Shown here: positions 45,163 through 62,779 of the stretch, in pieces | How the letters are laid out: every line of letters begins with the position of its first letter | Position numbering within the stretch: position 1 is the stretch's first letter | NCBI RefSeq assembly: GCF_037126465.1 | Contig: NC_088201.1 | Span: forward strand, 130,572,665 to 130,636,664 | DNA length: 64,000 nt | Direction of reading: 5' to 3' | Origin: Ornithodoros turicata | Lineage: Eukaryota > Arthropoda > Arachnida > Ixodida > Argasidae | Program-made: the position numbers and the translations under genes | Notes under the pieces: model-generated | What the model was told of the DNA's origin: nothing | Seen by the model: only the letters and a program-made list of their open reading frames with translations | Databases searched by the model: none

Positions 45163-48100
45163 TGAGGACACAGTCAAAAAGGCGTGTGCCCTTGAAGGAT
45201 CGCTTTCCATTCCGGCCCTCAACCGTAATCTTCTGCTGCAGTGATTTCTTGGTGCATGTTTCCATTATGACACGCACCACATCATCGAGATTTGCACCAC
45301 CCAGGACTGCTAGTCTATCCGCCTAGCAAACAGAAGAGCATTGATCGTTGTTAGCATTATCCTGCAAAACAGGGGGTATTTTCTGGTGGGGATCACACAG
45401 GGCTCCCAAGCAGTTCACTACATGACACAAAGTTCATTTGGTTCGTCACATACACCCACTGTATTAATCATCACACTTTTCACGTTCAATTCATAAGGAT
45501 GCACTTACAAGGTTCCTCCTTGTACTATTGTCCTCTAGCTTGCTCTCTAATTCTTCCCACTCTTCACAGGTTGAAAGTGGCTCTGGCAGAATATCCCCGA
45601 GCAAACCACTGGTCTCCTCCAGTGCTGCTGTCCCCATATTACACCTGCATTCTGCTACTGCAGCCCTAAGGTCTCGCACCGCTGCCTTTAGTTCAATTAA
45701 CATTTTGAGAGTCTTTCTCTCAAAAGCTGCAAAGCAATATGGGTCAGGTTAGGTTGACATAAAACCATTTTCTGATTACCGCGTAACTAGGTGCCCAAAA
45801 CTGTCATTGCACATGTTCACCTGCACCTAATAAAGGACTTCAGAAAATCCCAGAAGGCAGTGCACCGTGCTTTGAATTGCGGGACCTTATTACGACAGAG
45901 GAAGAGCCATCAAACCATTTTGGTTCTCATTGCCTGCCTATAGTCCACCACGGGTCAAGATCAGGGGAAGTGAAACTTGAAAGGCATAAAAAAAAAACTT
46001 TTTTTGTCCGCTCTTAATAAGTTCCCGGAATGCTGCATGCCTGCAAAGCTTGTCAGGATTTTCTGAAACAGTCGAGTACCCTTGAAACCATCAAACTGTG
46101 GGATTTTATTATGAGACAGGAAAAGCCGCCAAACTGTTTCAGTTTCTTCTTTCCCACCTATTATCCAGCAGGGCAGGGGGGCATTGTTTATTGAAATAAA
46201 AAATCAACAGGGAGAAACATGAAAGACATAAAAAAAAGCTTTTTTTTTCTCCACTATTAGTAAGTTCCCCGAATGTTGGATGCCCACAAAGCCTGTCAGG
46301 ATTTTCTGAAACTGTCTAGTATACACAATTTCAACTTCAGTTCAACAAGGGCTAAGTGACGACTGACTCTCAGTACATGCGTAATTGTGATTTACTTTAC
46401 TAGAGGTTTTTGATGTTACAAAGAGTAGTAGAAGGGCAGAGATACGCAGAACCAAAGAGCATGGTGACCATCATTCCCCACCGCTCTAGATAGGAAGGTA
46501 TTTGGAGCAAGAGCGTTCGCGCCAAGGAGGAGCACGCACCAAGACCGCCCCCGCGCGTTTCGCGGCCGCGCGTCGCGTAGAGAGGGGTTTCCTTCTCGCG
46601 TTTGAACATGCGTGAACATGCAAAATACATCTTATTCCCTTTCCACATCTTTTAATACATCCCCGAGCGGGGAGTTTTAATCGTCATTTACCAACGATCA
46701 ACTCACCTATCAACTTTCTACACAAAATGGGAGCTGCATGGAAGCTTTTCACTCGATGTTTTGGAAAGGAATATGATGATGAGCGGGAGACGGCGGACGA
46801 GAAAAAATGGCGACTTAAACAAGAAATATATGAAGCAAAAGCAGAAGCTGTGAGGAGGTTCCTCGCACACGAGCGTCTTATAGAAATGAAGCGTCGTTCC
46901 GCGAAAAGTCAAGACGATCAAATCGATTGGTGAGATGTACAATAAATCCATTTCTCACACCATCACTTATTCATTGTCTCATTTACTTTTGCATCGTGAT
47001 GTCTGACGCAGGTCGATTTGCTTTTATCCACCCTGCAAGGGTTATTATTTGCGGTCCTTCAATGTCGGGTAAAACCTATCTCGTTCGTAACATTTTAAGA
47101 AATCTTACAGTATTCACTGTAGTCCCAGAGCAAATCTTTTACGTTAGCAAATATGATGCGACCTGGCAAAATGAATTCGCAAATGATGTTACATTCCAGA
47201 AAGAGCTACCAAAGACATGGGATGAGAGCGTGCCTACTTTGATTATAGTCGACGATCTCATGACTGAGAAGAATGTGATGCAAGAAATGGTTCATCTCTA
47301 TACGAGAGCATCACATCATAAGAACGCATCCATTGTTTTTCTTTGTCAGTACTTATTTCACAACGACGTCAACTATAGAACATTATCTCACAATAGCACA
47401 TATATAATATTATTTAATAATTTAAGGTCACGCACGCAGCTGGAACTTTTAGGACGCCAGATCTTCGGCAAAGCTCAATTACCATACTTTATCAGTGCAT
47501 TTGAGCAGGCAACAGAGAAACCATTTGGTTATCTAGTGATTGACCTACACCCTCTGACGCAGTCTCAATTTCGTCTGCGAACAGGCATTACTGGAAACGT
47601 TCGACAGTTTGTTTTCTTGCCAAAATGAAAACTCTGCGTCATCATTTAACTTTTCTAAAAGTCCTTGCAACATGTACACCTAAAGAGCGCGATGAGATTT
47701 TAAAGGAGGCGCCACCTCATAGCATAGAAGCTCTTTCTGAAGTCTGTAAGAATATATTGAATGGTAATATTAAGCTACCGCCCAGATTGTTCAAAGAGCT
47801 GGAAAAGTATAAACACACCATTCGATACATTGCATATAAAACGCTGCACAAATCACCAAAAAGACTAAGATCCTTCCTCTATCGTCAGAGGGGTGGATTA
47901 GTGCCACTAATCCCCTTATTACTCACGGGATTAACCAGTGTGCTCGGTGGTGTCGCAGGTCGTGCTCTAGCAAAGACGGTAGGTGTCTAAAAAATGGCTA
48001 CAAAGGTTGAGGTATTGACTCCTATCGAATCAATTCTGGAATCTAACGAAAGCGATGATATTAAAGTAAAACGAATGTTAACTGCTATGTACTACATTAT

Positions 48101-51100
48101 AAAAAATCATCAGAAACCATCTAATGAAACAGAGCCAGCATCCACAGTACAGGAAGAAAAAAATGATGAGTCACTTCCAATGGGACGCTCATTTGATTAC
48201 AATTCGCTACCTTCTAATGTCAACATTAAAAAAGTAAGACGTGTAGTCTCAGTGCTACCTAGGAGCTTGACTTGGAATGATAAGGGAGAAATCATTCATA
48301 ACAACCAAACAATCGCTGGTTCTAATATAAAAGAATTGGTGTTGCATCTGTCCGGACACAAGAAAGGGAAGCCTGCCTGGTATCGAAAAGTGGCAAAGTT
48401 CTTGCAGCCACACAAAATACGTCAGAAGAGGAAAGCAAGGAAACGTATACTCTGGGAAACGTATAAATCGCCCCAAAGAACAAAGTTGCTTTCATCATCA
48501 TCATCAGATGAATATATCACAGAAGAAGAATGAATTATAGGGATCCAAACGCTGGTTTGGGGGGGGTTGCCCGATACTGCAGAGGTCGAAACATCTCTAA
48601 GAAACAGGCAATCGAAGAACTACAGCGAGATGATGTCTACACACTTTACAAAGAAGGAAGACGTAGATTTAAGAGAAGAAAGACCATCTCACTGCACATC
48701 GACGATCTTCATCAAGCAGACCTGATTTCATTCCTGCAGTACAAGAAACAAAATAAAGGATTTTCCTTCATACTCATTGTGATAGACTGCTTATCAAGAC
48801 GACTCATGGCTACACCCATTAAGACCAAGCGTGGTGAAGATGTGAAGAAAGGATTGATCAAGCTGTATAGGAGTCATAAAGTCTATCCAAATCACCTGCA
48901 GGTAGATAGAGGGCGAGAGTTCTATAACAAACATGTGAAAGCATGGTGTAAACGTCACTCAATACATATGTATAGCTCTAGATCAATATACAAATGTGCT
49001 TTAATTGAGAGGGCGATCAGGACTATTAAAGCTAGACTTTATCGTTATTTCGCCAGTAAAGGTCATCACAAGTACATTGCTGTTCTCCCAAAGATCATCG
49101 CTGACTACAATTCATCATATCACTCGACTATCAAGATGGCCCCGAACGACGTCGATAAAAATAACGAGATTGAACTATTCAATAGACTTCACAGTAAAAA
49201 TGACAACAAACCAAACAAGATTACATTGAATATCGGTGATCAGGTGCGCGTACTCACAAGTAGATCAATTTTTGACAAGGGGTACATTGGGCACTGGTCC
49301 TTAGTTGTCTACACGATCACACGATACAAGAACTCGGATCCACCAGTGTTTTACATAGCTGGACCAGATGGGGTCGAAGACGATGCAACTTACTATGCCA
49401 ATGAATTGCAACGTGTAGTGAAATCGCAAGACGACCCATACCCGATTGAACGCATAGTAAGTCGAAAGAAAATAAACGGTGTCACACATTATAAAGTGAA
49501 ATGGCTAGGTTACGATGACTCATTTAATTCCTGGGTTCCAGCCCAAGATGTCGCGAAGTTCTGATTTTTACATGTATCTCCTATCCAATGATTGCATGGA
49601 TATGCATCCGAACAACAGTCTCAATGACTTTACAATCACTCTGAGTGCACCACTACAAGTGAATGAAGAATATGAAGTCGGCCTGCATGAACTTTCCATC
49701 TCTAATGTATTCTACAACGTTCCACGGACTAACGATGCTACTATACATATTACTTCCAGAAGCATTATTGAGCTGCGTAAGGAAGTTGTTGTGATATCGA
49801 CTTTGGAACACGCGCTGCAAGATTTTTTAAAAGAATTCAACATCGCATTTGGTTATGTTGATGGAAGGTACACATTCCAACTACCTCAAATAATTCGTTC
49901 TATTAAGTTTTTGGATGAAGAACTGCAACAAGCCATGGGTGTGTCCACTATACAGGGTTTGAAAGTTGCAGGTGCTAAAGTTCCACGTCAGAACATGTAC
50001 ATGGGAGAGGAAGCTATCTCAAAGATGCTTTTAAAGGAAGAGGTGACTATCATTACACAATATGCTCCAATCATATTCATACCAGGTCGCCCTATCACTG
50101 TCACACTAAATCGCTTCTTTAAAAGATATGAAATCGATGGAAAGATACTATTTCAAAACAATACCTATACATTATTGGTCCCACGTCTCTTTGTTATCCC
50201 TGAACAACTCAAGAGACTCCTCAAATTAAACTCCAGTAAACTGTTAGAAAATACAACACAATACATTGGAGATCCATTTACATTCAGTTTTAGTGTTGTT
50301 CTAGAAAAAGTAATACTTGCAAGGGAAGAAGTCCAAATTCCACCAAATTATTACGAGACACCACGTTCGCTTCTACAAGCTATCAGAGGTGTGATAGGCA
50401 GCAATGCTATACTAACGTACAATGAAGATACACAGCTGTTTACTTTCACTCCACTTGATGGAGTAACTATAGATCTTTCTGAATATTTGAGTAATATGTT
50501 GGGTTTCGCACCAATTCAGTCTATTGCAAACACCACCACCGGAACCACACCACTCAATCTTAAACCATTGTTTCATAATTTCGTGATTTATTGTGATATT
50601 ATCGAATCATCTCATATAGGTGCAAAAAAGTTTCCCATTTTGAAACTCGTCCCATATTTACATAAAGATGATCCCCAGATTCATTACAGCTTCCATAACG
50701 TGCAATATTTGAAGCTGTTACAGAACGAAATCACGTCAATTTCGATTAAGTTGTATGATGAGACAGGTCGTCCACTTCATTTTAGAGGACCAGGTCGTAC
50801 AGCTCTAGTTCTACACTTCAAAAATGTATCTTAAAGAAGTGCCGGAGATCCATTATGGATTGGGACTTGGTGATTTAGTGCCGTATAAAGGACCTCTTTT
50901 TCAATCTGGGAATGGCTTCTTTAGTTCTTTGCGTAAGCTAGCATTGCCACTATTGCATCGTGCAAAGCCTTACATAGCCCGTACTGCGATGAGCGCAGCG
51001 AAAAAATTGGCGAAAAAGTTATCTGAAGGGCAAAACATCAAGCAAGCACTGAGAGCAAGCTCAAATGAATTAGGCACACAGATTTTGAAGGACATTGCAG

Positions 51101-54100
51101 GCAGCGGACATCGAAGGAAAAAGAGGAAGAGAAGAGACATTTTCGATTAATCCTCTGTAACCATGAAATAAAGAAGACACTTTTTTTTCATACGTTGATG
51201 TTTCTTCTTTATAAAGAAAAAGGTTTTTCTATGGAAAAGGGTCGCACTCCGAAAATGGCGACCAAGAGGGGTTAGAAGTCGGGACAATGGGTCACCCCCT
51301 TTCACCTGTAGAAAGTGTGGCGGACAATGCTTCGAAGCGGTCATCGCGTTCCGAAAAAACAGGTGGCCCAGGTAGGGCTGGCTTGTGAGGGCGATGTCAA
51401 AAGGTAAAGGGGGATTGGAGGACAATGATTCCAATCGTGAACGGGATCGCATTCAAAAAAGTGGTCGGCGGGGGGTTAGAGGAGTGGAACGGCTGATGGT
51501 TAGCAAAAACGGACCATGCTCGCCAGCGGACAATGTCAAATGGTAGGGGGACTGGAGGACAATGATTCCAATTGTGAACAGGATCGCATTCTGAAAACAG
51601 CGGGTCAGTGGGGGGTTAAAAGTGTGCATCAGCATCCAAGCTGGTTAGAAGTCGAGCAATGGGTCGCCTTTCACTTGTAGAAAGTGTGGTGGACAATGCT
51701 TCGAAACGGCCATCGCATTCCGAAATACAGGTGTGCCAGGTAGGGTTGGGTTAGAGGGCGATGTCAAAAGGTAAAGGGGGATTGGAAGAGTCTTTTTTGC
51801 TCGGGTAAGATGCTAACAAATAAAGCTATGAGGAAAGCATTGTACCTTTTCATTTGCAAAGATGTCGCAGGTCAACGTTGTACACGCACAGTCCCAGCTG
51901 GCTTTGAACGGGGAGTGTGAGTTATTCAACATACCTCCGACCCAAGTTTCAATAGAATCATGCGAGGCGCAAGTTTATTATCCTGTTTCTACAATCAGCG
52001 GAGGAGAATCGACGATCGAATGGAACATAACAAATCTCTCAGACTTGTATCTCGATTTATCATCTCTGTATTTTAATATAACTATGCAGATATTGAGGTC
52101 GGACGGGAGTGAACCAATTACCCGAAGAGCAGATGGTATCACTGAGGACATTGTATTCCCAGTCAACAACTTGGGTGCCGCTTTATTTAAATATGTAACC
52201 ATTCACTTGAATCAACGTCTTGCAAGCAGCAACTGTTTGAACTCCTATCGATGTATGATTGATACCCTACTTCATACGAATACTCATCTGCAGAAGACTT
52301 TAGATGATTGTGCAATGTATACATATGATACAGGAGAGCATGCAGCAAATGATCCAGTCGCTCGGGATGCAAAGTTGCGCATAGCTAGGACAAGTGGGGG
52401 GAAACTATTTGAAATTGTCATGAAAGTTAACACAGACCTCACAAACCAAGGGAGGCTTTTGTTACCCGGTGTGGGGGTTCGAGTGACTGCTCTACATAAT
52501 ACGGATAGCTTTAGATTGCTAACTGGCACCAATGAAACTCATAAGCATCAATTGCAAATCCACAGCGTGGCACTTGTAGCACGCAAAGTCAAAGTTAGCA
52601 ACTCAAGTTTTATTGCACACCAGAAAGCCCTTAGATCATCCCCGGCATGTTACATCATGCGTGGACTAGAAAGCAAAGTCCGCTCGCTTTCGCCGGGCCT
52701 TCATGATGCAATCTTTGAAAACTTATTCCCTGATAGAATTCCTGATCAACTTACTGTATGTCTAGTTCGCACCGAAGCTTATCAGGGTGATTACAAGTCG
52801 AGCCCCTTTTGTTTCGAACATTTTAATGTTTGTTCTGTAACACTATCAGTTGATGGACACAGGAAGCAACTATCCTATGACTGGGAAAATGATCTGGGTA
52901 GAGCAAGCTACTACGAATTCTTGTATCAACTGAATGAAAAACATGTCGAGTTGAGTTATGAAAAATATAAAAAAAATTCCTTTATCATGCATTGGAACTT
53001 GAGCGCTGACGAAAGTTTTGGTTCCTACTTTAATCCATTGCGGAAGGGCAATTGGAGGATTGAAATGAAGTTTGCTAAGCCATTACCTTGCGCAGTGTCG
53101 GTTATACTTATTAGTGAAGCACCCAAGATTTTATCAGTCGATGGTGATCTTGTTGTTCGAGTGGACTAAGCATGAATGTGTTTGATCTGGAATTATTGTT
53201 TTCTCTGAACCATGAAACTTTGAATCTGTATCGCGGGACCTTCGCAATTGATATGGTACCAAGTTTAACGACAGAAGGGTTTATAGTTATCAATACACAC
53301 CCACACGACGGTCCAGGAGAACACTGGCTATTGTACATGAGAGACAGGAATGACAAGTACATCTATGTGGACAGCTTTGGTCTACCACCGATTGAAGAAG
53401 AGCTGCTAGATCTACCCATTGATCAGTATTGCGAGAAATGCATTCAAAGCATTTACAGCTCACACTGTGGACTTTTTGTTTGTTTCTTTGCTTCCCGCCT
53501 TTGTAAGAATTACCAACTCAAGAGCATTGTTTCCTTATTTGACAATAACCTTGTACACAATGACCTCAAGATAATAAAAATGATTGAAGAGGAATACCTC
53601 ATTTAAAGAAAAATGTCTCATTTTATTTCTTCAATGTACAGACCTCTTTCAGATAGTCCTCCAGACTCGACACCTTGCGACAACCATCTTTCTTGCGACG
53701 CACGATGTATTCCGAGTGTTGGATGTAAAAGTTTCGAATTATTGGTCGCTTGAGTCCAGCATTAAGTATGGTTGGAGAGATATTGTCACCCTGACGATAC
53801 CGTCGCAACAAGTCACACTTGATGGCGACGAAGCGTTGGAGCCTCCGACTAATCTTTCCTCGTTTCGTCCGCATCGGAAACTGGAGAATTTGCATAATGA
53901 GACGAAAATCGGCCTCTGGCCCGTTGCAGTTCAGATAGGAGTTTAATTTCATCAAATCCTTGTACATCAGCCATTGTACCGTCAAAGCAAATCGTTCACT
54001 GGGCTTCATGGTTGATCCGAGCTTGGATGGCAACCGAGATAAGGTCGGATGTTATTGTCTAGCCAATGAGATGGATTCGATGACCACAATCCACCACAAC

Positions 54101-57100
54101 GACAGCGTCGCAGATGCTCATCATATTGTATAAAGAAAGTTCTGGGTGGTGGCTTCAATGTCTTCACAAGAGGAAGATCCCCCGTCAGGAGACAATCAGA
54201 ATCTTAACAAAGAATCACATTTTTAGAGAGGGAAAAAACGGGAAAACTTTCTATACATACAATCGTCCTCGGAGACCGCGTAGCACTTCTGCGCTTCCAT
54301 CGTCGACTGTGAGGGGGATGTTGAAAAGGAATCCGATGGAGAGGATGTGCATACTTTCCCTATTGGTTGCGTTTTTCCTTAGTTTGCAATTGGTTGTTTA
54401 CTACAAAGACTTTTGCTACATGTGGATTTCTCTAGCCCACCATCTTGTTGCTAAAAGTTGTTTATACAAAGTAGGAGAGGATGTGATATGATAATGAGGA
54501 TGCGTCAGCTTTAAAAAATGAAGATTTGGTTCCTAGAACATCATTTGGAAGCAATATGGCCAACGATGGTGGTAAGTTTTGTTGGTTTTTACCTTAAAGT
54601 TAGGTTTCTTATGAAAGTTGTCTTTCTCAGTTTTCTCGAGTTTTGAAGATGATGATGATAGTGGTGAGTTTTGGTGGTTTTTTCTCATCAAGTTCATTTT
54701 CTTAAGAATATTATCTCTCTCAGTATTCACGTCGAGCCCTGTGTTTTACTTCGAAGACGGTAAGGAAATGGTGAATATGAAAAGCGAGAAGTATCTAAAG
54801 TTCCATTCTTTTCAGCGCCTGAGTCGCCACCACCAAGCTGTATGTATTAGCGACATTTCATAGATTTCATGTTAATATATGAGTTTCATTTCAGATGAAT
54901 CAGTTTGTGTGGTATCAAATGAAAGTACGTACCAGCATATGACTTTGATTACTTGATCTTAATAGCAAATATCTTTTTAGATGATCATCGGGTACCACCT
55001 CCTGACAGTGAGTGTAGTTATAGATCTCGTTACCATGCTTGATCTGAATTGCAAATATCTTTTTAGATACTAACTGGATACCACCTCCTGACAGTGAGTA
55101 TAGTTATAGGCCTCGTTACAATGCTTGATATTAATAGTTGTTGTCTTTGTTTTCAGACTACCCGGGCCCCCCTATGCAGTGTATGTATTAGTGAACATTC
55201 TCTTTCAGGATATAGTGTTCCAGTGGCATATCGTTTTTATGTAGCCGATATTAATAGTTGTTGTCTTTGTTTTCAGACTACCCCGGCCCCCCTATGCATC
55301 GTATGTATAAGTGAATGTTCTCTTTCAGGATATAGTGTTCCAGTGGCATATCATTTTATGTACATGATGATATTCATAGTTGTTGTCTTTGTTTTCAGAC
55401 TACCCTGGCCCCCCTATGCAGTGTATGTATTTAGTGAATATTCTCTTTCAGGATATAGAGTTCCAGTGGCATATCGTTCTTATGTAGCCGATATTAATAG
55501 TTGTTGCATTTGTTTTCAGACTACCCTGCCCCCCCTATGCATCGTACGTATATGTGAATGTTCTCTTTCAGGATATAGAGTTCCAGTGGCATATCGTTTT
55601 TTATGTAGCCGATATTCATAGTTGTATTTGTTTTCAGACTACCCTGGCCCCCCGTTTTCAGATTACCCTGGCCCCCCTATGCAGTGTATGTATAAGTGAA
55701 TGTTCTCTTTCAGGATATAGTGTTCCAATGGCATATCATTTTATGTACATGATGATATTCATAGTTGTTGTCTTTGTTTTCAGACTACCCTGGCCCCCCG
55801 TTTTCAGATTACCCTGGCCCCCCTATGCAGTGTATGTATAAGTGAATGTTCTCTTTCAGGATATAGTGTTCCAGTGGCATATCGTTTTTATGTAGCCGAT
55901 ATTCATAGTTGATGTCTTTGTTTTCAGACTACCCCGGCCCCCCTATGCATCGTACGTATATGTGAATGGAAGTGTGGATGTTGTTCTTTAATATTTAGGT
56001 TCTCTTTCAGATCATTGCTGCTACTGCTGCAGTGAGTCATCTGGTTGGGTAAGCAATGTGGCGAATGCTGATTATATGTTATCTTTCAGATCCGGACGCC
56101 ATTAGGGACATTATTCGAGAAAGTTTATTTCAATCATTATTTGATTTACTAAATATGGAATAAAAATATTTTCTGTTGTAGAAAATGTGTACTGTCTTGT
56201 ATGTTTCTTCTGTTTCAGGTGTGAAGGTTTTTCCGCTGGGGTTTTCTCCTTCACGCAGATTGGCAACATAATTGGCAATCCCCAGCACCATTGGCTTTCA
56301 TTGGCATTACTAAGCATCATTGACTTTAATTGGCATTAATAAAATATTTTTCACTTGTACAAATGTGTATGTCTATTGCTTGCATGTCTTCAGGATGAAA
56401 GTATGCTATGTTAAGTGCGGTAGGAAAACTCCCCGCTCGGGGATGTATTAAAAGATGTGGAAAGGGAATAAGATGTATTTTGCATGTTCACGCATGTTCA
56501 AACGCGAGAAGGAAACCCCTCTCTACGCGACGCGCGGCCGCGAAACGCGCGGGGGCGGTCTTGGTGCGTGCTCCTCCTTGGCGCGAACGCTCTTGCTCCA
56601 AATACCTTCCTATCTAGAGCGGTGGGGAATGATGGTCACCATGCTCTTTGGTTCTGCGTATCTCTGCCCTTCTACTACTACAAAGGATTGCTTCCTGTTC
56701 TGTAGCCCAAAAAGGGTTGAGCACACAATCAACTAACAAATTTTACTTCCTCAGTTTGGGGTTGTAATATTTTGCAAAAAGTAGCCAGGCTGTTTTTGCA
56801 AAGTGCAAAATCCCACAACACTTACAAAACTGCAGCAGGGACACACAAATGTCACTGTGTATCAGAGAAGAAAGTACCGGGGCACGAGCTAGCTGCTGCT
56901 GAGCAGTTGATGAGCACGTGACCCTGAGCAAAAAGGGCATAGAAGTGAACATCCATAGAGAACATGGAAGTCCAATAAGCTTACGTGTAAGATTCCCTTC
57001 AGCATCCAGCGCTTCTGTGTGAATTGCGCTGTTGCTACGTCCTGAGGTAGGGGTACGTGAGCCTGAAACAACCATGAAATGAAGTAAAGTACAACAAATT

Positions 57101-60100
57101 GCTCAGACTGCAGTGTTTTAAGAACGCCTTGCTGCAGAAAAGCTATAATGGCCACACGACGAAGGCCTGTCCTTAAGCCCTTTGTAACACCGCAGTAACA
57201 GCTGTCATTATGACGAGATGAGACGACAAGATGGCGCCGCCGATACAAGACGTGTGTGGCTCCTGCTCTGAATCTTTCGTGGTAAAAGCAAAGACGATTG
57301 CTTGCTCTGGTGCCTGCAAGAGCCGGTTTCACTTATCCTGTGCCAATGTGACTACAGCGGATGTCCCATTTTTGGTGAAGGATGGGAAGAGCATCTGGAA
57401 ATGTGAGTGTTGTTGTCGAACCGGTAGGCGTAACCCGGATCAACCTATTTCCTACTCCAACGAAGCCTTCAGTCAAACAAGTAAGTCAGATCGTCAGACG
57501 ACAGCCGTAACGCCTGACAAAGAAACACTTGATGTTTGTCTTGTACCTCGTGTACAACTCGATAGCTTGTTGTCGAAGATTGACGAAATGGCAATGGAAC
57601 AAAAACAGTTGCGCTGTGAAATCGTGCATCTCAAAGACCTGCTTTCTCGGCTTGTGCCCCATGGCGTTTTTCAGCAACCTGATCAAAAAGAGCAAAGCTA
57701 CGCGTTTACCTTGAAGACTACAGTGCCCGCAGCGTACGCCCCAGTCACGGAACGTGCACCGGTAATGCCTCGTCGTCCTGATCGCCCTCCAGTGAAGGCA
57801 CCGGTTAATAATAATGCAGTGGAGAATGTAAATGCTTCACATCGGCGCACAAATGCGACGAATGAAAATGACGGTTTTACTTTGGTACAGGGGAAGAAAC
57901 GTGCTCCCGTCGTGGTCGGCAAGAGCACGGCCAGTAAGGTAAAATCTGCGCCTCGTGGTCCACCGGTCAAGTCGTTGTTTCTGTCAAGGATTGTGCCCGG
58001 CACGACTTGTGCCGACGTTAAGTCCCTCGTCGATGTCGTCCTCGGTCATCAACGTGCGTCCATCAAACAATTAAAGACAAGGTACTCAACATATTCTTCC
58101 TTCCATATCACAGTCGATGCCAGCGATTTTGATCGTATAAACCACGAAGACATTTGGCCTGAAGGCTGTATCTTCAAACAATTCTTAGGTAGGCTAGACG
58201 AGTCGCGTGTGACTAACGACCTTGAAGATGATAATAACGAGCCAACAGAGAATGTCGTCTGATTGTAGCGATTCTGTCTTTGATATGCGTAGTAATGCTA
58301 ACCACGTTACTAACACGCTTGGCTGTAATATTTCTTTGAATGTGCTTCACGTCAACATTCGCAGTATTCGAAGAAACTTCGATGCGCTTTTGGGACTTTT
58401 ATCACAGACAGCCACAGAATACGATGTGATCTGCATGTCAGAGACATGGCTACATACTGACGAGTTTTATAAAATACCAGGTTACATATTCGTGTCTTCA
58501 CCGCGAATATATTCGGCTAAGATGTCAAGGGGCGGTGGTGTAGCAATGTTTATTCTGCAGTCACTATCGTTTCATATTAGAAATGATGTTACCTTTTCTA
58601 TTCCTGATGCATGTGAGACACTATTTGTGGAAATTGTAGGTCATGGTATACTGGGTTGCATATATAGATCACCAAGCTGTTCAATGCAGACCTTCATACA
58701 GAGGTTTGAGGATGCTCTTTCTCAATTAAACTGCACCAGACACTCCGTTGTTATAGTAGGGAATTTTAATATAGATTTATTGTGTTCAAGAGTACATCGC
58801 TTTGCTTGAATGCTATGGCATGACGAATATGATTGACGCGCCCACAAGAACCACAGTCGGATCAAGGTCATTGATTGACCACGTAATTACAAAGAAGGGT
58901 GCAACTTGTACTTGTGGTGTTTTGGATTTGCACGTCAGTGATCATTGTCCTGTTTATTGTCATCGTAGCGTTGTTGGTAAACAAACCTTAGATACTAAAC
59001 CAACTGCAGCCACTTCTATTAAAACTGACTATGTTATGCTTCGCACCCTGCTATGCACGTATGACTGGAGTGATATCTATCATGAGGACGTTAACCGTGA
59101 ATTTGACGAATTCCTTAGAATTCTTAAGGGCTGTGTGGAGGCATCAACTATTGTTCTTCCCCGTCGACGTTACGAAAAACCGATGTGTCCTTGGATGAGT
59201 GTAGAGCTCCTGAATATATTGGCGGATAAGAACTACTGGTACAAGAAGTATAAGCGCTGTCCTGGTAACACCACGTTTGAATCACGTTATAAAGCGTTTC
59301 GTAACCGAGCAACGACGCTTGCACGTCAACTAAAGCGAAAATACTACGCTCAACTCATCCTGCAATGCAGCCGAGATTCTCGAAAGGTATGGCAAATTAT
59401 CAATTCTATTACCAAGCCTTCCAAATCAGGGAACGTTTTGCCCTCTGTTGAATTGTCAACAAGGGCTTTATGTGAGCGTTTTAATATTTACTTTACGTCA
59501 ATAGGGCATCAACTTGCTTCCAAAGTTGTAAGAAACTCTTCTTCGCCTGAAACAAGTTTTAACGGGCCAACTGTGTCCAATTCTTTTTTTATGGCGCCAT
59601 TTACTATACTGGATGTCGTTACAACCATTCGTACGATGAAAAACAACGTCGCTGTCGGTTGGGATGGCATCTCAGTACGTGTTCTCAAGACCTGTGCGAA
59701 TGTTCTAGCAGTACCTTTGCACCATATTTTCAACCATGCTTGTATCGCCGCTGTCTACCCGAACTCTCTTAAAGTTGCTCGCGTTGTGCCAATATATAAG
59801 GCAGGCGATAAGGAAAAGGTCGAAAACTATAGACCAATATCTGTGCTTAGTGCTATTAATACGTTATTTGAAAAGCTGTTGTGTAAACAGATCAGCCGAT
59901 ATCTGAAGAAATATAACATACTTTGTGATGCCCAGCACGGATTTCGAGCTGGTTTGTCAACTGCATCTGCAGTCTTGGCTGTTAGTGATGTGATACATCA
60001 GGCCTTGAATGATTCACGTGTGGCTGTTGGTCTTTTTGTCGATCTGCGGAGAGCGTTCGACACTGTTGATCATTATATCCTTCTTTATAAGCTTTATTGT

Positions 60101-62779
60101 TACGGCTTTCGTGGTTGTGTATGGCGTTTCTTGAAAAGTTATCTTTCTTCACGCACTATGTATACGAGTATTGACGGCGAGTATTCTGTTCCTATGCCAA
60201 TTGACATTGGCGTGCCCCAGGGCTCTGTTTTGGGCCCTGTCTTGTTCTCTCTGTATATCAATGACCTTCCACAGGTGTCCGATATTTTGTCAACCTACAT
60301 GTATGCCGACGACACATGCTTTTTGTATAGTTCCTCAAACACTTCTGATATAGGCCCTGCAATGTCCTATGAGGCCAACAAAATCGCTCAGTGGTTCGAA
60401 GCGAATCGTTTATCTTTAAACACGAGTAAGACGAAGTTTGTAATCTTCTCTAGATCATCATCTATCAGTAGTACTCAGATTAATATTACCGTTCAGAATC
60501 AAGCTGTGGAACAAGTGCATGAAATTAAATATTTGGGAGTGTTGCTGGACTCATCTTTTTCTTGGAGGCCACATATTGACAAAGTCGCAAAAAATATATC
60601 GCAGTCCTGTCACGCTTTATTCCTTGCTAGACAGTACTTCCCCCTGTATGTGCTGCGTCAACTGTACTTTGCTCTGGTCCAGTGTCACTTGACTTACTGT
60701 GTTACCTCATGGGGCAATGCATTTACAACATACCTTGAGCGTCTATTTAAACTACAAAAGAGAGCTGTCAGATTAATAACATTCTCTAATAGTCGAACCT
60801 CATGCGTTGGGTTGTTCATTGAATTGAATATTTTGCCTTTTCCCGATCTGATTCGTGAAAGATGTACCTTGCTTGTCTTTTCTATTGTAACGACAAATGT
60901 GCCCTACAATAGCTCTATATTTAAAAAATGCAACAGGAGCAATCGAAGTGTTGCTTTACAAGATTACATTTTGTATAGGCCAAAGAATGCATATGGAACC
61001 CGTTTGACTGTGTGCTTTGGTACGAGACTGTGGAATGCCTTACCGTTCGACGTGAAAACTAGTCATTGTTTCGCCGCGAAGTTGAGACAGCATATACTTG
61101 CCTCATCAAAATACTTGAAAATTGTTTAGTATTTCAGTTACCGCTTCAACGTTGATGTTTTTTAACTGTGTGTCGATGATGTTTTACACTGTGTGTCGCA
61201 GGAGTCTCCACTAGCATGCGCTACTGACCCTGTACCGCAGTATTTCCTTTGGCTGCAATGCCTTGTGTTTTTTAAATAAATACAAATACAAAATACAAAT
61301 AAATTATGTCTACGTGCTTTGTCATAAGTCGTTAAGCAGTAAAAATGATCTACAGAAGTACTTGTCCTGTTACACTTTTCAAAAGCTTTGACAAAGGACA
61401 TCATGTACCACAGAGGTTCATGTGCCACAGAACGCATCGGAGCAAAAAATAAACTGGTGTACAATCAGCCTTACTGTGTCCTAGGGATAATGGATCCTGC
61501 CTGCTCCTACTGCTTGAAGGCTGTGATACTGGAAGCACATATGAGTACAGTGTGCACAATATCAAAAAGATACTTCCACCACACAAACTTGGTAGCAAAA
61601 TGTGTTTTGAAGTACCACATTGTTCAAATAATGGCTGGTGCTGTACCATCATCACATGAATAATTTAAGTTTGGGTTGCAGCTTGATGTGAATCCCTAAT
61701 TGTACACATATTGACAATTCAACATGTATTTAAAAGAACTTCAGTGCACTCACCAGGGCTAGAAGATGCACTTTCCATGTTTCTGGCTGGGCAGACAATA
61801 CAATATTACACATCGCATAACCTCAGGAATTCTCAGTTGTGGAAGAAGGTGTAGCTTACGTGGTGATGGTAATCTCATTCTCTTTGTTGTCTGACTTGCA
61901 TTAACTATGAAAAAGAGGACATTCTGTAAAGCACCAGTGATTAAACATGTTATTTGACATGACATTTTAATTCTAATTTCAGCTTTATGCGTTTCCCTAA
62001 TGGTACACATATCCTCAATCCAATATGTATTTAAAATAACTTCAGTGCACTCACCAGGGCTAGACGGTGCACTTTCCATGTCTCTGGCTGTACAAGCATC
62101 ACAATATTGCAAATCACATAATCTGATAAAGTCTCAGTTCTGGAAGAAGGTGTAGCATACATGGTGATGGTAGTCTGATTCTCTTCCTTGGCTGACTTGC
62201 GTTAACTACGAAAAAGAGCACATTCTGTAAAGCACCAGTGATTAAACATGCTATTTGACATGACAGTTTAATTATAACAATACCTGCACCAGTATCCTCT
62301 CCTTCGCTGGATTCCGACTCGAGGTGCGACGTGTATTCCGCGTCCCTTGCGTTTTTCTTTGCCTTCTTGAAGCTGTCTATTTCACAAAAACAACACTTAG
62401 AAAAAACTGAGGGGCAGCCTGAAAGTCACGGCAATATTCGCTACACTTACTGAAGGACGCCATGCACTCGCAAGGACAAATCTCCCAGTCGGCCTCCGGC
62501 TCGCACAGTTCCTTTACCATCTCCAATATCTTTGAATTTGGTTTGTTTGTTGGCCACAAACACATCCTTCCAGCAACTATCCACTTCGTTGGCACGAATT
62601 CGACGGTGTCATTCCCGAACTTCACGACCGTGAATTTCTTACTGAAATCCACAAAGGAAATAAGTTAGAAGGTAGGTGCGCATTTGCACCAAATTGCGGC
62701 GTGGTGTCGGGTGGGCGGTGGACGAAATTCACCGCCTAATAACAAAAAAGAAGATAACGTCTGTGACAGCATACCTCAT
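45163..62779 (-). CDS. DUF4806-family gene with transposons in its introns
   Basis: Minus-strand exons. The 5' coding exon ends at 62775 (ATG at 62777-62779, then AG, donor GTATGC). Exon 62451-62641 continues in phase, giving KKFTVVKFG, EFVPTKWIVAG and CLWPTNK, the usual N-terminal block of this family. Exon 62284-62376 is acidic (HLESESSEGEDTG). Exon 56985-57062 (SRTPTSGRSNSAIHTEALD) has phase 1 at both ends. Exon 45509-45726 (FERKTLKMLIELKAAV; ends RRNL at GTAAGT) and exon 45163-45322 (ADRLAVLGGANLDDVVRVIM, then GRNGKRSFKGTRLF; ends at GTGAGT) form the DUF4806 domain. The phases agree if exon 62284-62376 joins 56985-57062 and that joins 45509-45726. The Polinton and the CR1-like LINE lie in the introns on either side of 56985-57062. 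The function of DUF4806 proteins is unknown. The 3' end is not located. Confidence 0.65.
46418..46423. repeat. Target-site duplication, left (ACAAAG)
   Basis: Six bases identical to 56680-56685, immediately outside the inverted repeats. 6-bp duplications are the hallmark of Polinton integration. Confidence 0.92.
46424..46678. repeat. Polinton left terminal inverted repeat (255 bp)
   Basis: Reverse complement of 56425-56679. Translations of both arms agree over 75 codons in two frames, so divergence is very low. GC-rich centre (about 46548-46580). The minus-strand open frame inside is a by-product of the repeat. Confidence 0.95.
46727..46933 (+). CDS. Small charged Polinton protein, 68 aa
   Basis: Begins MGAAWKLF, a start compatible with N-terminal myristoylation (MG then small residues). 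The rest is a highly charged helix (ADEKKWRLKQEIYEAKAEAV). It is the first gene after the left inverted repeat, with a 48-bp leader. No known family recognised. A membrane-associated or virion-accessory role is only a guess. Confidence 0.6.
   Translation: MGAAWKLFTRCFGKEYDDERETADEKKWRLKQEIYEAKAEAVRRFLAHERLIEMKRRSAKSQDDQIDW
46999..47628 (+). CDS. Genome-packaging ATPase (FtsK/HerA type)
   Basis: Walker A GPSMSGKT lies about 20 residues from the N-terminus. Walker B TLIIVDDLM follows, then a sensor-like LCQYLFHND. This is the compact A32-like ATPase that drives DNA into Polinton and related virus capsids. I choose ATG 46999 (MSDAGRFAF) rather than the in-frame ATG 46927. The upstream extension is not ATPase-like and would overlap the previous gene, and the 210-aa length fits the family. 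The stop overlaps the next start as ATGA (47625-47628). Confidence 0.9.
   Translation: MSDAGRFAFIHPARVIICGPSMSGKTYLVRNILRNLTVFTVVPEQIFYVSKYDATWQNEFANDVTFQKELPKTWDESVPTLIIVDDLMTEKNVMQEMVHLYTRASHHKNASIVFLCQYLFHNDVNYRTLSHNSTYIILFNNLRSRTQLELLGRQIFGKAQLPYFISAFEQATEKPFGYLVIDLHPLTQSQFRLRTGITGNVRQFVFLPK
47625..47990 (+). CDS. Small hydrophobic-tailed virion protein, 121 aa
   Basis: A helical, charged N-terminal two thirds is followed by RQRGGLVPLIPLLLTGLTS and a Gly/Ala-rich hydrophobic tail (VLGGVAGRALAKTVGV). The RQRGG-L context resembles adenain-type cleavage sites followed by a membrane-active peptide, as in minor core or entry-associated proteins of this virus group. It starts inside the ATPase stop codon and ends 3 nt before the next start. 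Role inferred only. Confidence 0.6.
   Translation: MKTLRHHLTFLKVLATCTPKERDEILKEAPPHSIEALSEVCKNILNGNIKLPPRLFKELEKYKHTIRYIAYKTLHKSPKRLRSFLYRQRGGLVPLIPLLLTGLTSVLGGVAGRALAKTVGV
47994..48533 (+). CDS. Basic Polinton protein of unknown function, 179 aa
   Basis: Acidic N-terminal helix (IESILESNESDDIKVKRML), then a middle domain VLPRSLTWNDKGEIIHNNQ..GSNIKELVLHL. The C-terminus is very basic (IRQKRKARKRILWETY), ending Ser/Asp/Glu-rich. A similar small globular domain recurs in Polinton gene runs, but I know no activity. It may bind DNA or core. Its stop overlaps the integrase start (ATGA at 48530-48533). Confidence 0.6.
   Translation: MATKVEVLTPIESILESNESDDIKVKRMLTAMYYIIKNHQKPSNETEPASTVQEEKNDESLPMGRSFDYNSLPSNVNIKKVRRVVSVLPRSLTWNDKGEIIHNNQTIAGSNIKELVLHLSGHKKGKPAWYRKVAKFLQPHKIRQKRKARKRILWETYKSPQRTKLLSSSSSDEYITEEE
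48530..49564 (+). CDS. Retroviral-type DDE integrase with C-terminal chromodomain
   Basis: 344 aa. The catalytic core has DLHQADLISF (first Asp), LQVDRGREF (second Asp) and ALIERAIRTIK (Glu). It ends with a chromodomain (YPIERIVSRKKINGVTHYKV..W.GYDDSFNSWVP). This inserts the element and makes the 6-bp duplication. No clear HHCC zinc finger is seen at the N-terminus. The last 17 nt overlap the start of the next gene. Confidence 0.93.
   Translation: MNYRDPNAGLGGVARYCRGRNISKKQAIEELQRDDVYTLYKEGRRRFKRRKTISLHIDDLHQADLISFLQYKKQNKGFSFILIVIDCLSRRLMATPIKTKRGEDVKKGLIKLYRSHKVYPNHLQVDRGREFYNKHVKAWCKRHSIHMYSSRSIYKCALIERAIRTIKARLYRYFASKGHHKYIAVLPKIIADYNSSYHSTIKMAPNDVDKNNEIELFNRLHSKNDNKPNKITLNIGDQVRVLTSRSIFDKGYIGHWSLVVYTITRYKNSDPPVFYIAGPDGVEDDATYYANELQRVVKSQDDPYPIERIVSRKKINGVTHYKVKWLGYDDSFNSWVPAQDVAKF
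49548..50834 (+). CDS. Penton-like minor capsid protein
   Basis: Begins MSRSSDFYMYLLSND. It is followed by NNSLNDFTITLSAPL and EEYEVGLHELSISNVFYNV, the typical opening of the Polinton minor capsid/penton family, then beta-rich sequence to the end (428 aa from this ATG). Its usual place next to the integrase and capsid genes supports the call. An in-frame ATG at 49515 would lie deeper in the integrase gene and I think it unlikely. Confidence 0.75.
   Translation: MSRSSDFYMYLLSNDCMDMHPNNSLNDFTITLSAPLQVNEEYEVGLHELSISNVFYNVPRTNDATIHITSRSIIELRKEVVVISTLEHALQDFLKEFNIAFGYVDGRYTFQLPQIIRSIKFLDEELQQAMGVSTIQGLKVAGAKVPRQNMYMGEEAISKMLLKEEVTIITQYAPIIFIPGRPITVTLNRFFKRYEIDGKILFQNNTYTLLVPRLFVIPEQLKRLLKLNSSKLLENTTQYIGDPFTFSFSVVLEKVILAREEVQIPPNYYETPRSLLQAIRGVIGSNAILTYNEDTQLFTFTPLDGVTIDLSEYLSNMLGFAPIQSIANTTTGTTPLNLKPLFHNFVIYCDIIESSHIGAKKFPILKLVPYLHKDDPQIHYSFHNVQYLKLLQNEITSISIKLYDETGRPLHFRGPGRTALVLHFKNVS
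50824..51150 (+). CDS. pVI/pX-like amphipathic, basic virion protein
   Basis: 108 aa. FQSGNGFFSSLRKLALPLL resembles an adenain-type cleavage site followed by an amphipathic helix, then AMSAAKKLAKKLSEG, and a basic end HRRKKRKRRDIFD. It overlaps the end of the penton-like frame by 11 nt. The sequence shortly after the stop has AATAAA near 51167. Confidence 0.65.
   Translation: MYLKEVPEIHYGLGLGDLVPYKGPLFQSGNGFFSSLRKLALPLLHRAKPYIARTAMSAAKKLAKKLSEGQNIKQALRASSNELGTQILKDIAGSGHRRKKRKRRDIFD
51151..51861. repeat. Central non-coding region with paired direct repeats
   Basis: Two alternating direct repeats lie in order A1 51270-51420, B1 51416-51478, B2 51553-51618, A2 51643-51787. Frames are broken and the copies differ by indels not in multiples of 3, so it is non-coding. 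It separates the two blocks of virion genes and contains AATAAA (about 51167) on the left and a second AATAAAG near 51820. Confidence 0.75.
51862..53169 (+). CDS. Major capsid protein (double jelly-roll family)
   Basis: 435 aa. Has LFNIPPTQVSIESC and YYPVSTIS near the N-terminus, VFPVNNLGAALFKYV, a middle SFIAHQKALRSSPACY, and PLPCAVSVILIS near the end. These blocks and their order match the Polinton capsid family widely annotated as F54H12.2-like. It lies directly upstream of the protease with 2 bp between them. Confidence 0.85.
   Translation: MSQVNVVHAQSQLALNGECELFNIPPTQVSIESCEAQVYYPVSTISGGESTIEWNITNLSDLYLDLSSLYFNITMQILRSDGSEPITRRADGITEDIVFPVNNLGAALFKYVTIHLNQRLASSNCLNSYRCMIDTLLHTNTHLQKTLDDCAMYTYDTGEHAANDPVARDAKLRIARTSGGKLFEIVMKVNTDLTNQGRLLLPGVGVRVTALHNTDSFRLLTGTNETHKHQLQIHSVALVARKVKVSNSSFIAHQKALRSSPACYIMRGLESKVRSLSPGLHDAIFENLFPDRIPDQLTVCLVRTEAYQGDYKSSPFCFEHFNVCSVTLSVDGHRKQLSYDWENDLGRASYYEFLYQLNEKHVELSYEKYKKNSFIMHWNLSADESFGSYFNPLRKGNWRIEMKFAKPLPCAVSVILISEAPKILSVDGDLVVRVD
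53172..53606 (+). CDS. Adenain-like cysteine protease
   Basis: 144 aa. The catalytic His is in PGEHWLLY, the acidic residue in YVDSFG and the Cys in SSHCGLFVCFF, the order and spacing of adenovirus-type maturation proteases (C5/C48-like). It should cleave the small virion proteins of this element. All catalytic residues are present. Confidence 0.9.
   Translation: MNVFDLELLFSLNHETLNLYRGTFAIDMVPSLTTEGFIVINTHPHDGPGEHWLLYMRDRNDKYIYVDSFGLPPIEEELLDLPIDQYCEKCIQSIYSSHCGLFVCFFASRLCKNYQLKSIVSLFDNNLVHNDLKIIKMIEEEYLI
53623..54033 (-). CDS. Unknown basic Polinton protein on the opposite strand
   Basis: Up to 136 aa. It may start at the internal ATG near 54009 (MKPSERFAL). Basic, with FPMRTKRGKISRRLQRF, NFYIQHSEYIVRRKKDG and LEDYLKEV. 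It converges with the protease and diverges from the micro-exon gene, leaving about 125 bp as a possible shared promoter. No family recognised. Confidence 0.5.
   Translation of the reverse strand: MPSKLGSTMKPSERFALTVQWLMYKDLMKLNSYLNCNGPEADFRLIMQILQFPMRTKRGKISRRLQRFVAIKCDLLRRYRQGDNISPTILNAGLKRPIIRNFYIQHSEYIVRRKKDGCRKVSSLEDYLKEVCTLKK
54034..54157. promoter_or_regulatory. Possible divergent promoter
   Basis: The only gap between the minus-strand unknown gene and the micro-exon gene. It contains TATTGTATAAAG at 54125-54135. If the first ATG is at 54158 this box is very close to it, so the true start site may differ. Confidence 0.3.
54158..56163 (+). CDS. Micro-exon gene encoding a predicted type II membrane protein
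   Basis: About 18 exons by splice signals and phase: 54158-54183 (tentative), 54227-54470, 54537-54573, 54631-54663, 54724-54759, 54816-54839, 54895-54924, 54981-55007, 55067-55093, 55157-55180, 55277-55300, 55399-55422, 55520-55543, 55638-55685, 55784-55831, 55928-55951, 56011-56031, 56090-56163. Total 795 nt, 264 codons plus stop. All 14 internal exons from 54631 to 56031 are 21-48 nt, multiples of 3, and phase 1 at both ends. Introns are 43-98 nt with donors such as GTAAGT, GTGAGT, GTATGT and GTACGT, and acceptors in T-rich tracts. The second exon encodes a basic head and a membrane segment (CILSLLVAFFLSLQLVV). The third starts with an NTS glycosylation sequon. Later modules are acidic (FEDDDDS), then PPPD, then YPGPP units, then CCYCC and a helical tail. 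TAA overlaps an AATAAA signal (56159-56164). Function unknown; exposed outside the membrane by the positive-inside rule. Confidence 0.75.
55157..55951 (+). repeat. Tandem array of micro-exon plus intron units (about 120-145 bp)
   Basis: Seven units, each with a TTTGTTTTCAG acceptor, an ACTACCC.GGCCCCCCTATGCA exon, a GTATGT/GTACGT donor, a short spacer and TTCTCTTTCAGGATATAG. Units five and six have a doubled exon (48 nt). Exon ends alternate between ..CAGT and ..CATC. Concerted duplication of exon plus intron is evident. Confidence 0.9.
56159..56164 (+). terminator. Polyadenylation signal AATAAA overlapping the stop codon
   Basis: GAATAAAAAT: the TAA stop (56161-56163) lies inside AATAAA. 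A second AATAAA is at about 56338. Confidence 0.6.
56164..56424. other. Polinton right subterminal region
   Basis: No open gene. It holds further acceptor-like tracts (TTTCTTCTGTTTCAG ending at 56219; CATGTCTTCAG near 56394), repeated TTGGCAT words and a second AATAAA. These could be alternative 3' exons of the micro-exon gene. Confidence 0.35.
56425..56679. repeat. Polinton right terminal inverted repeat (255 bp)
   Basis: Reverse complement of 46424-46678, ending CTACTACT. Confidence 0.95.
56680..56685. repeat. Target-site duplication, right (ACAAAG)
   Basis: Identical to 46418-46423. Confidence 0.92.
57231..58262 (+). CDS. CR1-like ORF1 with PHD finger
   Basis: 343 aa. N-terminal PHD-type zinc finger (CGSCSESFVVKAKTIAC..CKSRFHLSC..WKCECC), then a short coiled coil (LDSLLSKIDEMAMEQKQLRC), a proline-rich linker and a C-terminal fold (KSLFLSRIVPGTTCADVK). 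Such ORF1 proteins bind the element RNA. Its last 11 nt overlap the ORF2 start (ATGTCGTCTGA, 58252-58262), suggesting coupled re-initiation. Confidence 0.8.
   Translation: MAPPIQDVCGSCSESFVVKAKTIACSGACKSRFHLSCANVTTADVPFLVKDGKSIWKCECCCRTGRRNPDQPISYSNEAFSQTSKSDRQTTAVTPDKETLDVCLVPRVQLDSLLSKIDEMAMEQKQLRCEIVHLKDLLSRLVPHGVFQQPDQKEQSYAFTLKTTVPAAYAPVTERAPVMPRRPDRPPVKAPVNNNAVENVNASHRRTNATNENDGFTLVQGKKRAPVVVGKSTASKVKSAPRGPPVKSLFLSRIVPGTTCADVKSLVDVVLGHQRASIKQLKTRYSTYSSFHITVDASDFDRINHEDIWPEGCIFKQFLGRLDESRVTNDLEDDNNEPTENVV
58252..61129 (+). pseudogene. CR1-like ORF2: AP endonuclease and reverse transcriptase, one frameshift
   Basis: The endonuclease portion has NVLHVNIRSI, VICMSETWLH, GGGVAMF and VVIVGNFNIDL. 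The usual GDFN is GNFN, so a catalytic Asp is lost. It then has SLIDHVI and HVSDHCPVY. The reverse transcriptase has NYRPISVLSAINTLFEKLL, HGFRAGLSTASA, FVDLRRAFDTVDH, GVPQGSVLGPVLF and MYADDTCFL, and the C-terminal thumb KTKFVIFSR. The frame shifts near 58770-58802: the first frame ends at 58809 and the second is read from 58802 to 61129. The RT half is intact, but one indel and the Asp loss should disable target cleavage. Confidence 0.85.
61306..61750. other. Intronic sequence, no gene recognised
   Basis: Between the LINE end and the duplicated cassette. No supported exon. Confidence 0.35.
61751..62163 (-). repeat. Tandem duplication of a possible exon cassette
   Basis: About 61740-61980 and 62035-62270 are similar. 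Each minus-strand copy ends in ATGGAAAGTGCA..TCTAGCCCTG and a GTGAGTGCACTG donor, preceded by a CACCTTCTTCCA tract. The right copy could be an exon of the minus-strand gene (about 62055-62122), but its phase does not fit the flanking exons cleanly. Confidence 0.5.

What the first reader, a model, noticed from the sequence alone, without database searches (positions are those of the whole stretch)
54158..56163. A micro-exon gene inside a Polinton
Within 2 kb there are about 18 exons. All 14 internal exons from 54631 to 56031 are 21-48 nt, exact multiples of 3 and phase 1 at both ends. Summed lengths give one unbroken 264-codon frame ending in a stop that overlaps AATAAA. Any internal exon can be skipped or repeated without breaking the frame. 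This is the logic of schistosome micro-exon genes, where it generates variant secreted proteins. Here it sits in a virus-like transposon and would make variants of a membrane-anchored, Pro/Tyr/Gly-rich ectodomain. Exon structure is read from the sequence; variation and surface exposure are inference.
Basis: partly seen in the sequence, partly recalled or inferred. Interest (0 to 1): 0.96.

Follow-up and report, generated by a model that had tools for sequence, protein, structure and literature searches.

The report
Micro-exon gene replacing a Polinton polymerase
In the soft tick Ornithodoros turicata, some copies of a virus-like transposon (a Polinton) carry, in place of their DNA polymerase gene, a predicted gene cut into many tiny exons that can be duplicated or lost without breaking the reading frame; such copies likely depend on the polymerase of sibling copies to spread.

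Summary
The exon observation holds: 14 internal exons (54631-56031; 21-48 nt, multiples of 3, phase 1 at both ends) lie where stated. In 30 gap-free genomic copies the phase-1 frame of exons 1-4 has no stop (18 and 30 of 30 in the other frames) and pN/pS 0.23 against 1.38 and 1.08. One NCBI protein model from this genome (LOC135388778, Ornithodoros turicata) reads across six of the same exon joins.

54158 lies antisense inside a predicted two-exon minus-strand gene, and the hydrophobic stretch lies in a 136-nt leader shared with copies that carry PolB instead. The likelier start is ATG 54556: 167 aa, no membrane segment.

The larger finding: this gene occupies the PolB slot. Of 17 sampled family members without a first-pass array match, 13 switch at about 54441 to PolB, 4 carry the micro-exon gene, and none shows both there. 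The window copy has identical TIRs and a 6-bp duplication, so a PolB-less form moved recently, probably with PolB supplied in trans.

Octapeptide-exon number varies (3 to 40 per copy), but all five scored copies with eight or more are broken; open ones encode 126-168 aa. Splicing itself and alternative splicing are untested.

The parts
46418..46423 (.). left target-site duplication ACAAAG
46424..46678 (+). left terminal inverted repeat, 255 nt
   Evidence: 100% complementary to the right arm
46834..47628 (+). A32-type packaging ATPase (stop-to-stop ORF)
   Evidence: Pox_A32 E 9.1e-8, above the curated cut-off
48512..49564 (+). rve integrase with chromodomain
   Evidence: rve 4.9e-10, Chromo 1.7e-9
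49548..50834 (+). conserved Polinton ORF of unknown function (homologues at 30-33% identity near PolB genes)
   Evidence: structure attempt without an alignment failed, pLDDT 32
51859..53169 (+). double-jelly-roll major capsid protein
   Evidence: model pLDDT 74; mavirus MCP 6g44 E 3.3e-13
53148..53606 (+). Ulp1/adenain-type cysteine protease
   Evidence: C48 0.0016, C5 0.0044, both below the curated cut-offs
53623..54051 (-). conserved minus-strand ORF, also in a PolB-bearing Polinton at 40% identity
   Evidence: 75% identity over 61 aa in the sister family
54261..54300 (-). exon 1 of the same minus-strand gene
54306..54441 (.). leader shared with PolB-carrying siblings; likely a two-way promoter; contains the hydrophobic ORF start 54318-54392
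54442..56187 (+). cassette that stands in place of PolB (right edge uncertain, about 56182-56193)
54556..54571 (+). coding part of the first exon (MANDG)
   Evidence: ATG invariant in the 31 aligned copies
54631..54663 (+). micro-exon 1, 33 nt
54724..54759 (+). micro-exon 2, 36 nt
54816..54839 (+). micro-exon 3, 24 nt; joined to exon 4 it spells PPPSY
54895..54924 (+). micro-exon 4, 30 nt
54981..55007 (+). micro-exon 5, 27 nt
55067..55093 (+). micro-exon 6, 27 nt (related to 5)
55157..55180 (+). octapeptide exon A1
55277..55300 (+). octapeptide exon A2
55399..55422 (+). octapeptide exon A3
55520..55543 (+). octapeptide exon A4
55638..55685 (+). double octapeptide exon A5, 48 nt, with an internal acceptor
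55784..55831 (+). double octapeptide exon A6, 48 nt, with an internal acceptor
55928..55951 (+). octapeptide exon A7
56011..56031 (+). Cys exon (HCCYCC), 21 nt; a second GT donor lies 17 nt further on
56090..56163 (+). terminal exon with stop
56425..56679 (-). right terminal inverted repeat
56680..56685 (.). right target-site duplication ACAAAG

Best explanation
A reading frame running through 14 symmetric phase-1 micro-exons stands in this tick Polinton where sibling copies carry their DNA polymerase gene, and it is predicted to be spliced into a Pro/Tyr-rich protein. Shown by sequence: the same backbone, ends and leader exist with either PolB or the micro-exon cassette, switching at about 54441 and 56187; the spliced frame is under purifying selection; exon units have been duplicated and lost in steps that keep the frame. 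Inferred: (1) the pre-mRNA is spliced as drawn, starting at ATG 54556; (2) the product (about 126-168 aa) is a soluble or lipid-anchored adaptor, with an acidic head, a PPxY motif formed across the exon 3/4 join, 4-9 YPGPPM(Q/H)(Y/H) repeats, a CCYCC cluster that could be palmitoylated and a short amphipathic tail, possibly engaging NEDD4-type ligases or the ESCRT pathway; (3) the PolB-less form is a satellite, replicated in trans by PolB from siblings with near-identical ends; (4) tandem exon duplication tunes repeat number, whereas very long arrays are decay.
For: Exons and chain. Exons 1-4, 30 gap-free of 32 copies: stops 0, 18 and 30 of 30 in phases 1, 0 and 2; pN/pS 0.23, 1.38, 1.08. Cys + terminal exon: 0.54 against 1.40 and 1.57; stops 3 of 30 against 30 and 29 of 30. 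A exons: 257 of 285 with a donor from my list are multiples of 3, while A-A introns fall 101/27/84 by length mod 3. PPxY kept in 31 of 32 copies, CCYCC in 29 of 32. Open ATG-to-stop in 16 of 27 complete copies; the two other frames are stop-free in 2 and 0 of 27. One NCBI protein from this genome reads across six of the joins. Cassette swap: 9 of 9 siblings fetched first, then 4 of 8 more, carry PolB after the shared leader; right junction and PolB Pfam hit 2.9e-14. Mobility: window TIRs 100%, TSD ACAAAG; eight other copies have different, perfect 6-bp TSDs.
Against: No RNA evidence is at hand. The NCBI model does not join exons 1 and 2 (it reads through that intron) and reads on past the Cys exon. 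With a generic donor matrix 447 of 546 exons are multiples of 3; most misses are the Cys exon, whose second donor at 38 nt scores higher in 31 of 32, and A exons with weak donors. A-exon constraint is modest: 0.63 against 0.96 and 0.82. Three of the 16 open copies (L010, L028, L038) are open only with unrecognised exons left out. The tree does not settle whether the swap happened once. Trans-replication, adaptor function and palmitoylation are inference; no Pfam or PDB sequence match.
Confidence: 0.7

Rival explanations
1. Same gene, but it starts at ATG 54318 with a hydrophobic exon, so the product (18 exons, 210 aa) is membrane-anchored.
For: ORF with a strongly hydrophobic segment (Kyte-Doolittle 2.29); no stop in 28 of 28 gap-free copies and third-position excess 14 of 28 changes; GT/AG at the added introns in 30-31 of 31 copies.
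Against: pN/pS of this exon 0.74; the two linking exons 1.27 and 1.44. 4 of 31 copies have frameshifting indels in it. The stretch is upstream of the swap point and shared with PolB-carrying siblings; a TATA-like TTTATACAAA lies in the supposed second exon (by eye).
Confidence: 0.2
2. The gene works as a schistosome-MEG-like variant generator: exon skipping yields many secreted or surface forms.
For: Symmetric exons; array length differs between copies; a second donor in the Cys exon and internal acceptors in A5 and A6.
Against: No RNA test; under the favoured start no hydrophobic segment (maximum 0.43); five of five scored copies with eight or more A exons are broken; repeats are near-uniform (YPGPPMQ or YPGPPMH in 160 of 239), little suited to antigenic diversity.
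Confidence: 0.08
3. The array is a minisatellite or decayed stretch without a protein product.
For: Tandem repeat units of about 120 nt; many copies broken, 11 of 27.
Against: pN/pS 0.23 in the spliced frame only; single-copy exons 1-4 and the terminal exon are conserved too.
Confidence: 0.04
4. The cassette is a captured host gene, and the PolB-less copies are ordinary non-autonomous derivatives with passenger cargo.
For: Intron-rich layout is unlike the open ORFs of the element's other main genes; exact replacement of one gene.
Against: No host copy found: of the 36 array places fetched, all but L018 lie next to element parts in the pieces read. Absence is weak, since only the best candidates were scored and a DNA search with the 5' half did not complete. 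Constraint across subfamilies suggests more than a passenger.
Confidence: 0.15

Closest known systems
Polinton/Maverick transposons (adintovirus-like)
   Same: TIRs, 6-bp target duplication, rve integrase with chromodomain, A32-type ATPase, double-jelly-roll capsid
   Different: this form has no PolB; a micro-exon gene stands in its place
Schistosome micro-exon genes (MEGs)
   Same: 10-20 very short exons, mostly multiples of three (passages of PMC10526429)
   Different: MEG introns run from 100 to almost 5000 bp, here 55-98 nt; MEGs keep a signal peptide, which is lacking under the favoured start; no detected sequence relationship; lies in a transposon
Aphid bicycle genes
   Same: many small internal exons that start at codon position 2 (passages of PMC9168663), as here
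   Different: bicycle homologues carry N-terminal signals and CYC motifs; here a single CCYCC and no signal under the favoured start; no detected sequence relationship
Helper-dependent satellites (for example defective interfering genomes; recalled, no call)
   Same: structural and end sequences kept, replication gene lost
   Different: the lost gene is replaced by a conserved spliced gene; helper dependence is inferred only

Membership tests
Polinton/Maverick | terminal inverted repeats and 6-bp target-site duplication | tested here: met
Polinton/Maverick | retroviral-type integrase | tested here: met
   rve 4.9e-10
Polinton/Maverick | A32-type ATPase | tested here: met
   9.1e-8
Polinton/Maverick | double-jelly-roll major capsid protein | tested here: met
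   (predicted structure)
Polinton/Maverick | adenain-type protease | tested here: inconclusive
   both hits under the curated cut-off; homologous ORFs lie near PolB genes
[quoted passage not shown]
   absent between the TIRs of this copy; present in sibling copies. So: a PolB-less derivative of a Polinton family, not a complete Polinton
Schistosome MEG | many very short exons, mostly multiples of three | tested here: met
Schistosome MEG | long introns (100-5000 bp) | tested here: not met
   55-98 nt among the micro-exons
Schistosome MEG | N-terminal signal peptide | tested here: inconclusive
   none from ATG 54556; a hydrophobic N-terminus only if ATG 54318 is used
Schistosome MEG | alternative splicing to protein variants | not testable with these tools
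   no RNA data
Aphid bicycle gene | internal exons start at codon position 2 | tested here: met
   definition
Aphid bicycle gene | secretion signal and CYC motifs | tested here: inconclusive
   one CCYCC exon in 29 of 32 copies; no signal under the favoured start

The most novel reading that the evidence does not exclude
A Polinton family lives as two interchangeable forms: a polymerase-bearing helper and a satellite that has traded its polymerase gene for a spliced 'exon accordion' gene. The accordion's micro-exons let the satellite change the valency of a PPxY/YPGPP scaffold by copying exon-intron units, and its product gives the satellite an edge over its helper, for instance in egress or packaging.
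Probability: 0.3. Interest if true: 0.92.

Novelty: new variant of a known kind. Interest (0 to 1): 0.8.

Why it matters
It would show that a capsid-encoding animal transposon can give up its own DNA polymerase, keep spreading, and maintain in that slot a spliced gene whose tandem micro-exons change number without breaking the frame. That makes two questions testable in one genome: whether Polintons have helper-dependent satellites, and why micro-exon genes arise again and again. The natural series of copies (3 to 40 octapeptide exons) is a ready record of how such exon arrays grow and die. My listings for Polinton with microexon or micro-exon held no paper, and broader listings showed nothing on PolB-less satellites by title or abstract; only an open-licence library was searched.

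Tried and rejected

Alternating second exon type (GATATAG..ATATC) inside the A-A introns: rejected by eye, as it would need a 28-nt intron and lacks GT in some units.

Phase 0 as the coding frame: open in the window but 18 of 30 copies have stops.

38-nt Cys-exon donor: scores higher, but the frame it gives meets stops in 31 of 31 copies.

Micro-exon genes in other Polintons: none found in the pieces read of two PolB-bearing elements; longest chain 3.

Homologues: none for the 210-aa model; one NCBI model with an alignment of six spliced copies (only the 7,996 candidates sharing most words were scored). Capsid in viral contigs: none. Structure of 49548-50831: useless, pLDDT 32. CEP55/ALIX idea: GPPxxxY occurs 7 times in the predicted protein, and one review says CEP55 binds ALIX and TSG101 at GPPX3Y (passage, PMC5037681); whether ticks have CEP55 was not tested, so it is not used. 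One search timed out; one search placed exon 0 one base off and is superseded for the frame test.

Full report
What was checked. A chain search for symmetric exons finds 14 in the region, against at most 3 or 6 (by acceptor threshold) in 95 control windows from the rest of the window and its other strand, and at most 4 in 200 dinucleotide shuffles (phase 1). A first run with stricter thresholds saw only 3, 1 and 1 here against 1 in controls; the second thresholds were set loose enough to admit the weaker sites. Phase 0 is equally open in the window, so the window alone cannot name the frame.

Which frame is read. The window's own genome was searchable: 1.07 Gb in 379 contigs, with 67 matches to the array. 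I grouped these into 36 other places and fetched pieces of about 3-7 kb; two of them (L027, L044) may belong to one element. In the 30 of 32 aligned copies that are gap-free over exons 1-4, the phase-1 frame has a stop in none, phase 0 in 18 and phase 2 in 30; pN/pS is 0.23, 1.38 and 1.08. For the Cys exon with its 21-nt donor plus the terminal exon the ratio is 0.54 against 1.40 and 1.57. For 68 distinct 24-nt A exons it is 0.63 against 0.96 and 0.82, a weaker signal. Acceptor AG was found for 32 of 32 exon 1 hits, 33 of 33 exon 2, 33 of 33 exon 3, 32 of 34 exon 4, 32 of 32 Cys and terminal exons, and 289 of 307 A hits. With donors taken from a hand-made list, 257 of 285 A exons are multiples of 3, while A-A introns spread 101/27/84 by length mod 3. 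With a generic donor matrix 447 of 546 exons are multiples of 3. The PPPSY motif exists only if exons 3 and 4 are joined, and a PPxY is kept in 31 of 32 copies.

An outside witness. A profile of six spliced copies found one protein in 5.77 billion: NCBI LOC135388778 of Ornithodoros turicata, 111 aa, E 6.6e-22, on a contig of 108,618,500 bases, the length of C3 of this genome. This names the host, a soft tick. Its peptide reads across six joins of my model (2/3, 3/4, 4/5, 5/second 5-type, to A, A/Cys), but it reads through the exon 1-2 intron and on past the Cys exon. I do not know what evidence NCBI's model rests on, and I did not read the DNA of that copy.

The 5' end. A plus-strand hydrophobic exon at 54318-54392 can be joined in frame through two more exons (18 exons, 210 aa), but its pN/pS is 0.74 and the linking exons give 1.27 and 1.44. 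It lies in a leader shared with copies that carry another gene downstream. I therefore favour ATG 54556, which is invariant in 31 copies: 16 exons, 167 aa, no hydrophobic segment (maximum 0.43).

The element. Terminal inverted repeats of 255 nt are 100% complementary, flanked by ACAAAG on both sides. Of 30 other copies whose predicted left ends were fetched, both ends were located in 14; eight show perfect, different 6-bp duplications, one a duplication with one mismatch, and five could not be read. Integrase, ATPase and a weak protease match are there. The 51859-53166 protein has 7 relatives in the protein search and a model (pLDDT 74) that matches mavirus, Sputnik and PBCV-1 capsid proteins. 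No PolB lies between the ends, although the genome holds at least 91 PolB places (capped).

The swap. A capsid search gave 97 rows (capped list); I counted 61 places of at least 89% identity, 20 with an array match downstream and 41 without. Of those 41 I read 17. The first nine (L079-L087) are 96.9-100% identical to the window through protease, minus-strand genes and the leader up to 54441 (L082 is interrupted by an insertion), then turn into a PolB reading frame. Of eight more, four carry PolB and four the micro-exon gene in older form. None showed both at the junction. On the other side the shared sequence resumes in PolB's last intron, about 56182-56193, and the siblings' TIRs match the window's at 90-97%. 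The PolB part reads as DNA_pol_B_2, E 2.9e-14. A sister family at 66-71% capsid identity has PolB in the same place, so PolB is probably the older state. A tree of 31 micro-exon copies, 8 PolB siblings (L082 left out) and 2 sister copies needs two changes and puts the PolB siblings in one supported clade inside the micro-exon copies, but a single micro-exon clade is not rejected (p-AU 0.295).

Variation. A exons per fetched copy range from 3 (L043) to 40 (L023), and one copy has its 27-nt exon 5 at 13 places (L041). Of 31 copies with an aligned 5' part, 4 are incomplete; of the 27 others 16 are open from ATG 54556 to the stop and 11 broken. Three of the 16 (L010, L028, L038) are open only because exons with unrecognised sites were left out. 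The open ones encode 126-168 aa. All five with eight or more A exons (L013, L015, L019, L022, L023) are broken. So exon number does change in frame-preserving steps, but giant arrays look like decay, and variation by splicing is untested.

How it most likely works. The PolB-less form keeps capsid, ATPase, protease and integrase genes and moved recently; it likely takes its polymerase from siblings with near-identical ends. The cassette's gene is conserved, so it probably helps the element to spread. Its motifs (acidic head, PPxY, YPGPPM repeats, CCYCC, amphipathic tail) suggest an adaptor at membranes or to ubiquitin/ESCRT partners; this is inference from motifs, partly recalled.

Noticed in passing
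window 54006-54202 and 54261-54300, minus strand: Small two-exon minus-strand gene with a CRCGGLW..GC pattern (zinc-ribbon-like by eye), conserved in PolB-bearing Polintons; in L075 a longer relative has a repeated CGGLW motif.
   Followed up: partly
window 49548-50834: Conserved Polinton ORF upstream of the capsid gene, 30-33% identical to ORFs near PolB genes (L075, L077); no Pfam match above cut-off and no usable structure model.
   Followed up: partly
window 51859-53166: Best Foldseek hit in the viral library is an uncharacterised protein of a Cotesia sesamiae bracovirus record (R9XLG5, 24% identity, but TM-score only 0.36), followed by adomavirus LO7.
   Followed up: no
L041 (C173:11500-14400): A copy in which the 27-nt exon 5, not the A exon, has been amplified (13 places).
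   Followed up: partly
L082 and L087: Sibling copies with an insertion inside the minus-strand gene (L082) and with the leader repeated four times in tandem (L087).
   Followed up: no
window 26172-26883, 61679-62277: Tandem repeats of 254 and 301 nt outside the element.
   Followed up: no
window 57222-61129: ORFs that look like a LINE (endonuclease and reverse transcriptase, by eye) directly beyond the element's right flank.
   Followed up: no
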